NCBI GenBank assembly: GCA_900468625.1
Contig: UBUL01000024.1
Span: forward strand, 124,001 to 188,000
Length of the DNA: 64,000 nucleotides
Direction: 5' to 3'
Source of the DNA: Hyphomicrobiales bacterium
GTDB taxonomy: Bacteria; Pseudomonadota; Alphaproteobacteria; Rhizobiales; Rhizobiaceae
Both the position numbers and the translations under genes were made by a program. Positions 27,325 through 34,653 of this stretch are shown piece after piece. The notes under the pieces were generated by a model that was given only the letters and a program-made list of their open reading frames with translations, was not told the DNA's origin and searched no databases. Position 1 is the stretch's first letter, and each line of letters begins with the position of its first letter.

Positions 27325-27401
<77 letters not shown>

Positions 27402-27508
27402 ACCTGCTCTATGAGCCAGATTTCCCTAGACTTTTGGGCATTGGGACGCAAGAGGAAAAATCGTCTTGTGAGAATAAAAATCGAACAAACTGACATGGAT
27501 TCCGATGA

Positions 27509-27540: not shown

Positions 27541-27605
27541 GATGTTCTAAACTTGTTCCGCCGAAGGAGACCACCAATGCAGATGATTGAGGAGGCCATA
27601 AGCTC

Positions 27606-28637
27606 ATGACAACAGGACGGACGATCGTCCGCATGCGATTCGGCTCCCACTTATATGGTACAGCGACTCCCGCATCGGACACGGACTTTAAGAGCATCTT
27701 TGTGCCGACAGCTCAATCGATCTTGACGCAATCCGCACCAAGAACTCTGAGCAATCAACGCCCGAAAAGCCACGGCGAAAAGAATTATGCCGGCGAAGTC
27801 GATGAAGAGAAGATCAGTGTCCAACAATTTCTAAAATTGGCAGCCGAGGGCCAGACGATGGCGCTTGATATGCTTTTCGCCCCGCCTTACGCGATCATTG
27901 GCGAAACGTCATGGGAATGGCGAGAGATCATCGCCAATCGGCATAAACTGTTGACACGAAAGTCCGCCGCCTTCATCGGCTATGCACGTACTCAGGCGAA
28001 CAAATATGGCATACGTGGATCACGAGTTGCGGCGGCTCGCGCGTCTCTAGCAATGCTGGAAAAGGCCGTAGACGATCATGGTTCGACGTCAAAATTGGAG
28101 GTCGTTGCTGATCAGATTGATGCGCTTATGATGGCCCATCAGCATATGTCTATATTTGAAGACACCACTCCGCATGGGCAGAAAATTTTGCTCTGGGAAG
28201 TTTGTGATCGAAAAATGCCGCTTTCGGCGTCAACCAAAAACGCCCGCGATATAATGCAGCGCGTTGTTGATGAGTATGGACGGCGCGCACTGATGGCAGA
28301 GACACAGCAAGGAATCGACTGGAAAGCGTTGTCTCACGCCGTACGCGTTGGACAGGAGGCTGTTGAGCTACTGACTTCTGGCCATATCACGTTCCCGCTG
28401 CCAAATACGGCGCATGTCGTGGATATCAAGCTCGGTCGTATGCTCTATCAGGATGTCGCGCAGGAAATCGAGGATCTGCTTGAACGCGTTGAGAAGGCTG
28501 CCGCCACCTCGGCATTACCCGATGGTCCAGACGAAGAATGGATCTGCAGTTTCATCACCCACGTCCACCAGCATGAAGTCAGACGCGAGCCCTATGGATC
28601 ATATAAGCCCATTGAGTGGGAAGGGTTTAACCCATGA
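27606..28637 (+). CDS. Predicted nucleotidyltransferase (RlaP-like, DNA polymerase beta superfamily)
   Basis: This 343-residue protein has the polymerase-beta-type signature near its start: [17 protein letters not shown], with GS at residues 13-14 and the metal-binding SDTD at 24-27. The rest is helical, with [20 protein letters not shown] typical of the RlaP-like family linked to RNA repair or RNA end modification. It would add a nucleotide to an RNA, protein or small molecule; the substrate is unknown. It overlaps the HD gene by ATGA. It is plus strand, opposite to the late genes, so it is probably a moron or early gene. Confidence 0.85.
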
Positions 28638-29137
28638 ACCAAAATAGCATTGAAAAATATGCGCTCCGGTTTGCCACCCAAGCGCACAACGGTCAAACGC
28701 GAAAATATTCTGGCGAGCCCTACATCGTTCACCCGATGGCGGTAGCCGAGATCGTCCGTAATGTGCCTCACTCTTCCGAAATGATCGCCGCCGCACTCCT
28801 GCATGATACTGTGGAAGATACCTCAGTCACGCTTTTTGATATCAAGGAGAATTTCGGGGCGAAGGTGGTGACGCTTGTTGCATGGCTCACCGACATTTCT
28901 ACACCGTTTCATGGCAATCGTTCGGCGAGGAAGGAACTGGACCGTCACCATCTGGCTTTAGCGCCGGCTGAGGTGAAAACCATCAAACTGGCTGACCTGA
29001 TTGATAATTCGGAATCAATCAGGAAGCACGATCCGGATTTCTGGCGTGTCTATCGTGCAGAAAAAATAAGATTGCTCGAAGTTTTAAAAGAAGGTGACGA
29101 AAGCTTATGGAAACGCGCTGCGGCACTCGTGGATTAA
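28634..29137 (+). CDS. HD-domain (p)ppGpp hydrolase-like protein (SpoT/MESH1 type)
   Basis: The 167-residue product is a stand-alone HD domain like the hydrolase part of RelA/SpoT. It has [20 protein letters not shown] (H18, R23 and H33), [12 protein letters not shown] (H57-D58, E61-D62) and a later KLADLIDN motif; these are the metal-binding and catalytic positions of the family. No synthetase, TGS or ACT domain follows. It may degrade the alarmone (p)ppGpp or a related nucleotide. Start and stop overlap the nucleotidyltransferase gene (ATGA), indicating coupled expression. Confidence 0.87.
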
Positions 29138-32773: not shown

Positions 32774-33847
32774 ATGCCGAGATTTGTGATTTTAGATTTT
32801 GTCCGCTTCTTTCTGGCGGTTTTGGTCGCAATGATGCATTTCGACGGCTTCGGGGCTCCACATAAAGCCTATCTGGCTGTAGACTTCTTTTTCATCCTGT
32901 CGGGATTCGTCCTGAGTGCGGCATATGAGCGAAAAGCCAGTTCCGAGAATTTCTATCGGTCATTTATCATTGACCGAGTAGCGCGCCTCTACCCGCTCCA
33001 TGTCCTTATCCTGCTGCTGCTGATCCCGGTGAATCTGCTGTTCTACTGGACGAGCCACGGCCAACTTCTGGAAAATGGCTGGTCCTATCAGGATGGCCGA
33101 ATTTACACCCTCCTACTAAACCTGCTCCTTCTCCAAAATATTGGGCTGAATACCGCAGGTTCATGGAACGCACCGTCATGGTCCATATCGGTCGAGATGT
33201 TCGTGAATGTCTTTCTAGGGCTGCTGCTGATCCCAATGGCTCGAAGGCGGATCGTTTGGCCGTCCCTCTTGGCGCTTTCGACCATATGCTACATGATCAT
33301 TTTTGGTCAGTTCGGTAATCTCGGCGTGATCTATGAACGGGCATTCGGGTTCTTAAATGCGGGTCTGTTGAGAGGCTTCGCCGGGATATCACTAGGCGTC
33401 ATATCCTACCAGATTTGGCAATGGCTACAGGCGAACTCAGCGTGTCTTCCCTTGGCAAAAACCATGGCTGTCGGTAGTGCCATCGCATCCCTGCTCATTA
33501 TGCTTGTGTTCACCGACATATCGAACGGTGACCTTGCGATCATTCCGCTAATGTTCATATTCGTGACCAGCACGGCAATCGTTGAAAAACAGGCTCCAGT
33601 TAGGGATGGGCGAATTCGATCTCTCCTGATCGAGCTTGGCGCACTCTCCTATGGCGTGTATCTTTTTCACTGGCTGATTTTGACGATCATGCGCTACCAA
33701 CTTGTTTACGTCTGGAAGATGCCCATCAATTTCAATTCGCCCGTTTCGCTTCTTTCCTTCCTCGTAGTGGTGGTCGCAGCGGCGGCATTCATCCATCACA
33801 AATTCGAACTGCCCATGAAGGAATTGGTCAAAAAATGGTTAGCTTAA
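32774..33847 (+). CDS. Acyltransferase family 3 membrane O-acyltransferase (OafA-like)
   Basis: The 357-residue integral membrane protein has about ten helices. It shows the family's conserved start: MPRFVILDFVRFFLAVLVAM with the key histidine H22, then AVDFFFILSGFVLS, and later LSYGVYLFHWLI near the C-terminus. Such enzymes acetylate lipopolysaccharide, exopolysaccharide or lipid-linked sugars at the inner membrane. On a prophage this suggests receptor alteration of the lysogen. It lies on the plus strand between minus-strand genes and overlaps the esterase gene by 13 bases. Confidence 0.92.
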   Translation: MPRFVILDFVRFFLAVLVAMMHFDGFGAPHKAYLAVDFFFILSGFVLSAAYERKASSENFYRSFIIDRVARLYPLHVLILLLLIPVNLLFYWTSHGQLLENGWSYQDGRIYTLLLNLLLLQNIGLNTAGSWNAPSWSISVEMFVNVFLGLLLIPMARRRIVWPSLLALSTICYMIIFGQFGNLGVIYERAFGFLNAGLLRGFAGISLGVISYQIWQWLQANSACLPLAKTMAVGSAIASLLIMLVFTDISNGDLAIIPLMFIFVTSTAIVEKQAPVRDGRIRSLLIELGALSYGVYLFHWLILTIMRYQLVYVWKMPINFNSPVSLLSFLVVVVAAAAFIHHKFELPMKELVKKWLA

Positions 33848-34653
33848 AGCTCGCTACCATAGCATTTCTGCTTTCCGCCAGCGCAAGTTTGGCCGATGAC
33901 AACCCATACAAAATTGTGACAACTCCAGATACCTATATCGAGAGTATGAGCATCACGAGCAAAGAGCAGGTCGATTGCAAGTGGATTGCCCAGCGGAACC
34001 CCATCGTTATCTTCGGGACTGGCCAATCGCTCATCGGCAACAGTAACGGGTCCGTCCGTTGGGATCAGCGCACCAACCGGAATGTCTATGAACATTGGGG
34101 CACGCGCTGTTACAAAGCGAGTGAGCCGATTTATGGGGGGGCCGATGTCCATAGGTCATTTATCTTTCGTCTCGCGGACTTGATATCCAGAGGGACAAAT
34201 AAAGATGTTGTCATCAATCTAGCCGCCGTTGGAGGGGCAGATATCTCCCGATTTGCCCCAGGCGGCGATGTCCACCGCATCGTCATGGAACAACTTCGAA
34301 ATGCCCAAAGCGTCGGCTTGGGCCCCTCCTTTATCCTATGGGAGCACGGACAAGCTAATGTCGAAAGTGATCAACAGCAATATAAGGCTGCTGTCGAAAC
34401 ATTATTTCGCGAGATCCGAGGGCTAGGAATTTCAAGCCCAATTTTCATTGCTCAAGACACCATGCTTTCTTGGCAAAATTACCCCAAGATGCGCGAGACG
34501 CAGCAGCAGTTGGCGTCCGAGCCGGGGAATGCCCTCGGCCCGAACATTGATTTTATCCGCTTCAGAATGGACGGAACCCACATGGACGACGAGGGAGTGG
34601 ATACCCAGGCCGCCATGTGGTTTCAGGTCATTGCGGAAAAATTCGGCTGGTAG
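33835..34653 (+). CDS. Secreted SGNH/SASA-type carbohydrate esterase
   Basis: The 272-residue product has a Sec signal (MVSLKLATIAFLLSASASLA) and an SGNH-fold domain. Block I is IVIFGTGQSLIGNS, the middle glycine-asparagine region is INLAAVGGADIS, and ILWEHGQANVESD and RMDGTHMDDEGVDTQAAMWF carry the catalytic D-x-x-H (D and H) pattern. It resembles sialate-O-acetylesterase-type enzymes. It starts inside the last codons of the acyltransferase gene, so the two are made together. It may act on O-acetylated polysaccharide in the periplasm. Confidence 0.82.
   Translation: MVSLKLATIAFLLSASASLADDNPYKIVTTPDTYIESMSITSKEQVDCKWIAQRNPIVIFGTGQSLIGNSNGSVRWDQRTNRNVYEHWGTRCYKASEPIYGGADVHRSFIFRLADLISRGTNKDVVINLAAVGGADISRFAPGGDVHRIVMEQLRNAQSVGLGPSFILWEHGQANVESDQQQYKAAVETLFREIRGLGISSPIFIAQDTMLSWQNYPKMRETQQQLASEPGNALGPNIDFIRFRMDGTHMDDEGVDTQAAMWFQVIAEKFGW

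What the first reader, a model, noticed from the sequence alone, without database searches (positions are those of the whole stretch)
27606..29137. RlaP-like nucleotidyltransferase coupled to a SpoT/MESH1-type HD hydrolase
The two genes overlap by ATGA on the plus strand at the edge of the prophage. The first has the GSHLYG...SDTD transferase motif; the second is a lone (p)ppGpp-hydrolase-type HD domain with all its motifs (H33, HDTVED). A writer and eraser of nucleotide modification, or an alarmone eraser with an RNA end-modifier, would be a new anti-defence or stringent-response-control pair. No known operon of this composition comes to mind.
Basis: partly seen in the sequence, partly recalled or inferred. 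Interest (0 to 1): 0.62.

Follow-up and report, generated by a model that had tools for sequence, protein, structure and literature searches.

The report
Phage RNA-end repair gene pair
A prophage carries two overlapping genes, an RNA-end nucleotide-adding enzyme and a small enzyme that removes pyrophosphate groups; some related viruses keep such genes beside RNA-repair genes, which suggests a kit that mends transfer RNAs damaged by bacterial defences.

Summary
Window 27606-28637 encodes an RlaP-family nucleotidyltransferase, 28634-29137 a complete small alarmone hydrolase (SAH, MESH1/SpoT-type HD). They overlap by ATGA, 199 bp inside the prophage's attL. The pair recurs: 17 of 90 non-redundant viral RlaP loci have SAH within 1 kb, same strand (8 RlaP-first, 9 SAH-first; one single-ORF fusion), against 4 SAH genes in the other 1.10 Mb of flank. 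SAH genes also lie in RNA-repair clusters (30 of 67 non-redundant SAH loci). One isolated phage overlaps SAH with RtcB; one MAG has RNA ligase-SAH-RlaP in a row. The SAH of phage SSU5, 47.6% identical, is reported to undo the tRNA modification made by a toxSAS toxin. My reading: a tRNA-end repair, counter-defence pair; SAH clears 3'-pyrophosphate, RlaP refills lost nucleotides. That chemistry is inferred. Against it: no ligase in the prophage parts held; 37 of 67 SAH loci have no recognised repair gene within 3 kb; of 17 isolated phages with SAH, none has RlaP beside it and 11 show no RNA link I recognise, SSU5 included. A writer/eraser pair on one modification is not supported.

The parts
27606..28637 (+). 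RlaP-family (PF10127, Pol-beta superfamily) nucleotidyltransferase, 343 aa
   Evidence: model pLDDT 92.9
28634..29137 (+). small alarmone hydrolase (PF13328 HD_4, MESH1/SpoT type), 167 aa, catalytic residues complete
28634..28637 (+). ATGA overlap: start of the hydrolase within the stop of the transferase
27589..27595 (+). GAGGAGG, Shine-Dalgarno-like stretch before the transferase
   Evidence: read by eye; not tested
27363..27407 (.). attL core, 45 bp, repeated at C12:11306-11350 of the same genome (attR) beside an integrase gene
27325..27401 (-). tRNA-Pro (GGG), the integration site; the core covers its 5' half

Best explanation
A phage RNA-repair (counter-defence) pair. Shown: the two genes overlap, belong to RlaP and to the small alarmone hydrolases with catalytic residues intact, and this adjacency recurs in both orders and once as a single ORF; SAH genes of a part of the related phages also sit in RNA-repair clusters. 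Inferred: the hydrolase removes the 3'-pyrophosphate that toxSAS/CapRel-type immune toxins put on the CCA end of tRNA, and RlaP adds back nucleotides lost from damaged RNA ends, so that translation of phage genes goes on. In some relatives an RNA ligase (RtcB or T4-type) would seal breaks; the window's pair would act on ends alone, rely on a ligase I did not recognise, or protect the lysogen.
For: 17 of 90 non-redundant viral RlaP loci carry SAH within 1 kb, same strand: 9.7 per 100 kb against 0.36 per 100 kb further out. ATGA overlap in 7 of 14 pairs inspected (window, L032, L036, L042, L054, L096, L148) and 8-nt overlap in two more (L035, L037). Fusion L038, 556 aa with both Pfam domains. 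6 of 52 bacterial-genome RlaP loci have SAH next door, among them RNA ligase-SAH-RlaP in L236. RtcB beside RlaP and SAH in L032; RtcB overlapping SAH in phage BDU-MI-1. SAH loci: repair genes 22.8 per 100 kb within 3 kb against 2.3 beyond. The SAH of phage SSU5, 47.6% identical over 86% (I take it to be PaSpo), is said to remove the tRNA modification made by FaRel2 (PMC11559606, passages). RlaP is predicted to restore lost nucleotides beside RNA ligases (PMC7824862, passages). The RlaP model's nearest solved fold is HalB, crystallised with oligodeoxyadenylate, Z 9.6.
Against: No ligase, kinase, RtcB or TROVE match in the prophage parts held, no RtcB in the host. 37 of 67 SAH loci lack a recognised repair gene within 3 kb, and only 3 of these 67 (L112, L131, L148) have RlaP within 1 kb. 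Of 17 isolated phages with SAH that I read, none has RlaP in the stretch, 3 have an RNA ligase within 3 kb and 11 no RNA link that I recognise, SSU5 included; two isolated RlaP phages read have no SAH in 6-kb flanks. The host has one RelA/SpoT synthetase match, the long Rel, so no toxSAS is visible there. Seeds bias the share 17 of 90: 3 of 7 rows of the first query alignment and 6 of 10 of the second were SAH-adjacent. The repair families were picked because they were common in that same set. The fusion is one contig.
Confidence: 0.55

Rival explanations
1. The hydrolase is a plain alarmone eraser ((p)ppGpp or (p)ppApp), and stands by RlaP only because phages cluster unrelated counter-defence genes.
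For: Family match to MESH1/SpoT hydrolases. Published views treat phage SAHs as alarmone enzymes (PMC7824862, passages; PMC12846349, passages). Many phage SAHs have no recognised RNA-repair neighbour (37 of 67; 11 of 17 isolated phages).
Against: Overlapping frames in both orders, a fusion, and 27-fold local enrichment are more than loose clustering; recurrent neighbours are RNA-repair genes.
Confidence: 0.25
2. The HD protein heals 3' ends for the ligase (2',3'-cyclic or 3'-phosphate), as HD domains do in Runella HD-Pnk and in E. coli CCA-adding enzyme (both recalled, no call).
For: Neighbouring kinases are short (159 aa in L149) and a kinase of this kind is said to lack the 3'-phosphatase domain (PMC12846349, passage), so some other enzyme must heal 3' ends.
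Against: HDxxED, the mark of the pyrophosphohydrolase type (meaning recalled), is kept in 187 of 187 viral-contig hits scanned, near-copies included, though phage TPWB-08 lacks its last D. Calcineurin-like (by eye) and DSP-like genes in the same clusters could heal ends.
Confidence: 0.12
3. Writer and eraser of one nucleotide modification, or a toxin-antitoxin-like pair (MntA style).
For: Two enzymes of opposite type with overlapping frames.
Against: MntA model 13.3 bits against cut-off 60. RlaP is found more often without SAH within 1 kb (73 of 90 loci) and, in part of the loci, with ligases. No toxin gene recognised by eye among the neighbouring ORFs.
Confidence: 0.05

Closest known systems
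RlaP nucleotidyltransferases (PF10127; T4-type nrdC.11 kin, phrog_388) of phage RNA repair
   Same: Family score over cut-off, catalytic motif, some relatives beside RtcB or T4-type RNA ligase
   Different: Coupled to an SAH gene; no ligase found in the window prophage parts
Phage small alarmone hydrolases, e.g. PaSpo of Salmonella phage SSU5
   Same: 47.6% identity over 86%, same catalytic residues
   Different: The SSU5 gene has no RlaP or ligase recognised in its 6-kb flanks; here the gene overlaps RlaP
RtcB RNA-repair operons, e.g. RtcR-TROVE-RtcB-RlaP in L020/L234 (RtcR and TROVE named by eye)
   Same: RlaP 47% identical
   Different: No SAH there; no RtcB, TROVE or RtcR match in the window prophage parts
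toxSAS-SAH antitoxin modules (faRel/aTfaRel)
   Same: An SAH enzyme that can undo toxSAS products (PMC11782079, passage)
   Different: No toxSAS gene in the host by PF04607 apart from the long Rel

Membership tests
RlaP (PF10127) | Profile score above curated cut-off | tested here: met
   50.2 bits against 23
RlaP (PF10127) | Pol-beta catalytic motif GS...DxD with a further carboxylate | tested here: met
   G13 S14 D25 D27 invariant, D66 at least 90% in 51 rows; meaning of the motif recalled
RNA-ligase-linked RlaP repair operon | RNA-ligase gene in the neighbourhood | tested here: not met
   None in the prophage parts held, no RtcB in host; some relatives have it. So the gene is filed as RlaP by sequence only, not as part of a ligase operon
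RlaP (PF10127) | Nucleotide addition to RNA ends | not testable with these tools
   bench assay needed
Small alarmone hydrolase (SAH) | Lone HD_4 domain without synthetase domain | tested here: met
   HD_4 (and weak HD) only, 167 aa, no RelA_SpoT match
Small alarmone hydrolase (SAH) | H / HDxxED / D...N catalytic set of Rel and MESH1 | tested here: met
Small alarmone hydrolase (SAH) | Hydrolysis of alarmone or tRNA 3'-pyrophosphate | not testable with these tools
   bench assay needed
toxSAS-SAH toxin-antitoxin | toxSAS synthetase gene adjacent | tested here: not met
   one PF04607 match in the host, inside a 752-codon frame on another contig
Type VII MntA antitoxin | NCBIfam NF047752 above cut-off | tested here: not met
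   13.3 bits against 60
Hailong HalB-type nucleotidyltransferase | Fold similarity over the domain | tested here: inconclusive
   VIA Z 9.6, rmsd 4.2, 172 aligned; Foldseek best E 3.2e-3

The most novel reading that the evidence does not exclude
Phage small alarmone hydrolases of this branch are chiefly RNA-repair enzymes: a 3'-pyrophosphate-clearing part of modular tRNA-repair kits (RlaP-SAH, RtcB-SAH, kinase-ligase-SAH), which would mean that tRNA 3'-pyrophosphorylation by bacterial immunity is common enough for phages to carry a standing cure.
Probability: 0.42. Interest if true: 0.75.

Novelty: new variant of a known kind. Interest (0 to 1): 0.6.

Why it matters
SAH-like genes are common in phages: 458 of 50,697 records match at E 1e-3, 216 of them over 80% of the length; in the 60 listed they are named metal-dependent phosphohydrolase, (p)ppGpp enzyme or hypothetical, among other names. 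If they belong to RNA repair, their annotation and the search for their targets change, and a counter to CapRel/toxSAS immunity becomes predictable from gene order. The RlaP-SAH pair gives a small two-protein system to test it.

Tried and rejected
Writer/eraser and MntA-type toxin-antitoxin readings: rejected for lack of support (no toxin gene recognised next door by eye). Stringent-response control of the host as the main role: kept only as a rival. SAH-carrying isolated phages were checked for RlaP: none in the stretches of the 17 read.

A genome-contig scan with P0001 alone found no relative; a second with alignment A6 found 52. Rfam and PADLOC were not searched. The SAH tree is weak: 165 columns, 45 of 91 inner branches open, JG004, the host Rel, ACP17, XacN1, DLP_6 and BDU-MI-1 on long branches; on it the RlaP-adjacent label needs 9 changes and starred branches force at least 3, so I claim only that the pairing is scattered, not how often it arose. 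Rows with stops, under 135 aa, or from redundant loci were dropped before that tree. The label TROVE2 in my scripts is Pfam DUF2828/DUF7788; I do not claim it is a Ro protein. The DSP-like protein scores below the Pfam cut-off (26.4 against 33.5) and the calcineurin-like one has no Pfam match under 0.01. The JG004 gene annotated as phosphatase is a Macro match, so JG004 shares kinase (AAA_33; my kinase profile did not hit it), ligase and phosphoesterase but not the DSP gene; its SAH gene has no Pfam match under 0.01 and 3e-12 in my profile.

Papers: PMC7824862, PMC12846349, PMC11559606, PMC12691689, PMC9503650, PMC6514570, PMC9712102, PMC11782079, PMC5648845, PMC7881722 and PMC7790460 were seen as passages only. 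Not held: Burroughs and Aravind 2016, Kurata 2021, Jimmy 2020, the HD-Pnk paper; any of them may mention this link. That the SAH/RNA-repair link is not in print rests on searches of one open-access library alone.

Full report
What is there. Two + strand ORFs, 27606-28637 (343 aa) and 28634-29137 (167 aa), share ATGA. The first is an RlaP nucleotidyltransferase (PF10127, 50.2 bits against cut-off 23; phrog_388, E 2.1e-80), the second a lone HD_4 hydrolase (PF13328, 72.6 bits against 27.2; phrog_990, E 2.9e-42). In the PDB by sequence the hydrolase finds Lmo0812, Rel enzymes and MESH1; for the transferase profile the best hit is an unrelated sigma factor at E 0.22. H33, H57, D58, E61, D121 and N125 are invariant in 36 aligned rows; G13, S14, D25 and D27 of the transferase are invariant in 51 rows.

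Where it is. The prophage begins at 27408: a 45-bp core at 27363-27407, in the 5' half of tRNA-Pro, recurs at C12:11306-11350, just after an integrase ORF (C12:10138-11295, PF00589, E 2.3e-28). DNA matches to relatives stop at 27407 in 9 of 12 same-genus genomes; in two they run on by 54 and 73 bp, in one the match lies wholly upstream. The pair is thus the first gene unit inside attL. Its G+C is 51.6%, against 54.7% for the rest of the prophage in the window and 59.8% for the host side. No RtcB was found in the host. In the prophage parts held, my repair-gene profiles hit nothing at 1e-4, and tblastn of repair proteins gave one hit under 0.1, the phosphoesterase query at 0.045. The prophage is split over two contigs, so a part may be missing.

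Is the pair conserved? RlaP kin match 1598 and SAH kin 458 of 50,697 phage records. Two viral-contig scans with RlaP alignments gave 149 loci, 90 after removing near-copies. In 17 of the 90 an SAH lies within 1 kb, on the same strand; 4 more SAH genes lie 4.1-6.7 kb away. That is 17 in 176 kb near and 4 in 1104 kb far. Orders are 8 RlaP-SAH (fusion included) and 9 SAH-RlaP. The near/far comparison is not circular, but the share 17 of 90 is biased upwards: the query alignments held SAH-adjacent RlaPs (3 of 7 rows in the first, 6 of 10 in the second). The first scan alone gave 13 of 71. In 14 pairs inspected, 7 overlap by ATGA and two by 8 nt, in both orders. L038 is one ORF of 556 aa with RlaP then HD_4; a search with it listed no second fusion among its best 80 loci. 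In bacterial genomes 6 of 52 RlaP loci have SAH beside them: Allorhizobium taibaishanense, Mesorhizobium sp., Bradyrhizobium sp. Tv2a-2, Novosphingobium chloroacetimidivorans, an Acetobacteraceae MAG and a Planctomycetota MAG. In the last, T4-type RNA ligase (PF09511, E 2.7e-15), SAH and RlaP stand in a row, though its RlaP frame is broken in two. RlaP kin are rare in the window's order: 3 of 297 genomes, the own one included.

What surrounds the hydrolase elsewhere. An SAH-centred scan (best 80 of at least 560) gave 67 non-redundant loci. Clustering of neighbours put a DSP-like phosphatase, a calcineurin-like protein (named by eye), an AAA_33 protein that I read as polynucleotide kinase, and a T4-type RNA ligase among the commonest (families). 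Within 3 kb of SAH these occur in 21, 23, 19 and 14 of 67 loci; any of seven families, RtcB, TROVE-type and DUF2828/DUF7788 genes included, in 30 of 67. Density is 22.8 per 100 kb near and 2.3 far. RlaP lies within 1 kb in only 3 of them. These families were chosen from the same set, so the figure is inflated by selection. In 30 further non-redundant loci not in the earlier sets, fetched by similarity to the L038 fusion, 24 have such a gene or RlaP (one locus RlaP only), 13 a ligase, and 68 of 68 neighbours are on the same strand; many are close kin of the first set, so they are not fully independent. All 187 hydrolase hits scanned in viral contigs keep HDxxED (near-copies included).

Isolated phages. 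I read 17 chosen from the 60 listed of 458 SAH records, plus JG004, chosen because of a paper. RNA ligase within 3 kb: BDU-MI-1 (RtcB overlapping SAH), ACP17 (RNA ligase 1.9 kb; a gene annotated metallophosphoesterase overlaps SAH, no Pfam match under 0.01), RHph_Y2_11 (RtcB 2.6 kb). Other RNA links: 201phi2-1 (Thg1 as annotated, 2.4 kb), XacN1 (four tRNA genes), DLP_6 (tRNA-Arg and DUF2828/DUF7788). None recognised in 11: phiKM1, X66, D6, TPWB-08, PDP46 (two tiny genes annotated as RNA-binding or similar, not counted), OLIVR6, SSU5, pJN2-26, Cygsa01, pVa-21, JA33; most neighbours there are hypothetical and were tested only with my profiles. None of the 17 shows RlaP, and two RlaP phages read (vB_EliS-L02, Cr30) show no SAH. 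JG004 has kinase, RNA ligase, phosphoesterase and SAH on one strand within 3.9 kb. The paper on its relative Adele treats SAH and the kinase/ligases in different paragraphs and does not link them in the passages I saw.

Mechanism. [quoted passage not shown] RlaP is predicted to restore nucleotides lost from RNA ends, beside RNA ligases (PMC7824862, passages). Together they make a tRNA-end repair pair; shown are genes, motifs and neighbourhoods, inferred are substrates and order of action. The AlphaFold2 model of RlaP (pLDDT 92.9, pTM 0.84) is nearest to Hailong HalB (Z 9.6, rmsd 4.2, 172 residues), ahead of aminoglycoside transferases (Z up to 6.8); Foldseek alone gives no PDB hit under 1e-3, so this is only a hint towards nucleic-acid chemistry.

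Limits. The window's own prophage has no ligase in the parts held, and the host has a single RelA/SpoT synthetase match, so neither a full repair kit nor a toxSAS is visible here. The enrichment does not say which substrate is cleaved. The HD-as-end-healer rival remains open.

Known or new. RlaP and phage SAHs are both known. I found no paper joining SAH to RlaP or to RNA-repair clusters in ten searches, but key papers are not held. I rate it a new variant of a known kind: a new composition of RNA-repair cassette, testable with two purified proteins.

Noticed in passing
L022:4391-5570 (phage phiKM1): HicA-like, HicB-like and SAH genes stand in a row near the integrase, HicB and SAH overlapping by 4 nt; SAH coupled to a HicAB toxin-antitoxin pair.
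   Followed up: no
L033:6860-7747: An ORF that I read as a LAGLIDADG homing endonuclease ends in about 12 residues like the C-terminus of RtcB (E 0.001), in the place where L032 has a whole RtcB; RtcB apparently lost or replaced.
   Followed up: partly
L034:8797-9873: The SAH domain is in one frame with a cysteine-containing, HNH-like (by eye) region before it, right after RlaP.
   Followed up: partly
L020:1910-9465 (same contig as L234): Gene row RtcR-TROVE-RtcB-RlaP-second RlaP in a Methyloligella MAG (RtcR and TROVE by eye); the second transferase scores PF10127 E 1.8e-69.
   Followed up: partly
window 27577-27609: A 10-codon ORF whose stop overlaps the RlaP start by ATGA; possible leader, may be chance (read by eye).
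   Followed up: no
window 32774-34653: Two + strand prophage genes amid minus-strand phage genes, an acyltransferase-like membrane protein and a secreted hydrolase-like protein by eye; possible lysogenic conversion genes.
   Followed up: no
L204:13807-14367: The JG004 (Pakpunavirus) SAH is very divergent (branch 7.67) with no Pfam match under 0.01, though annotated as metal-dependent phosphohydrolase.
   Followed up: partly
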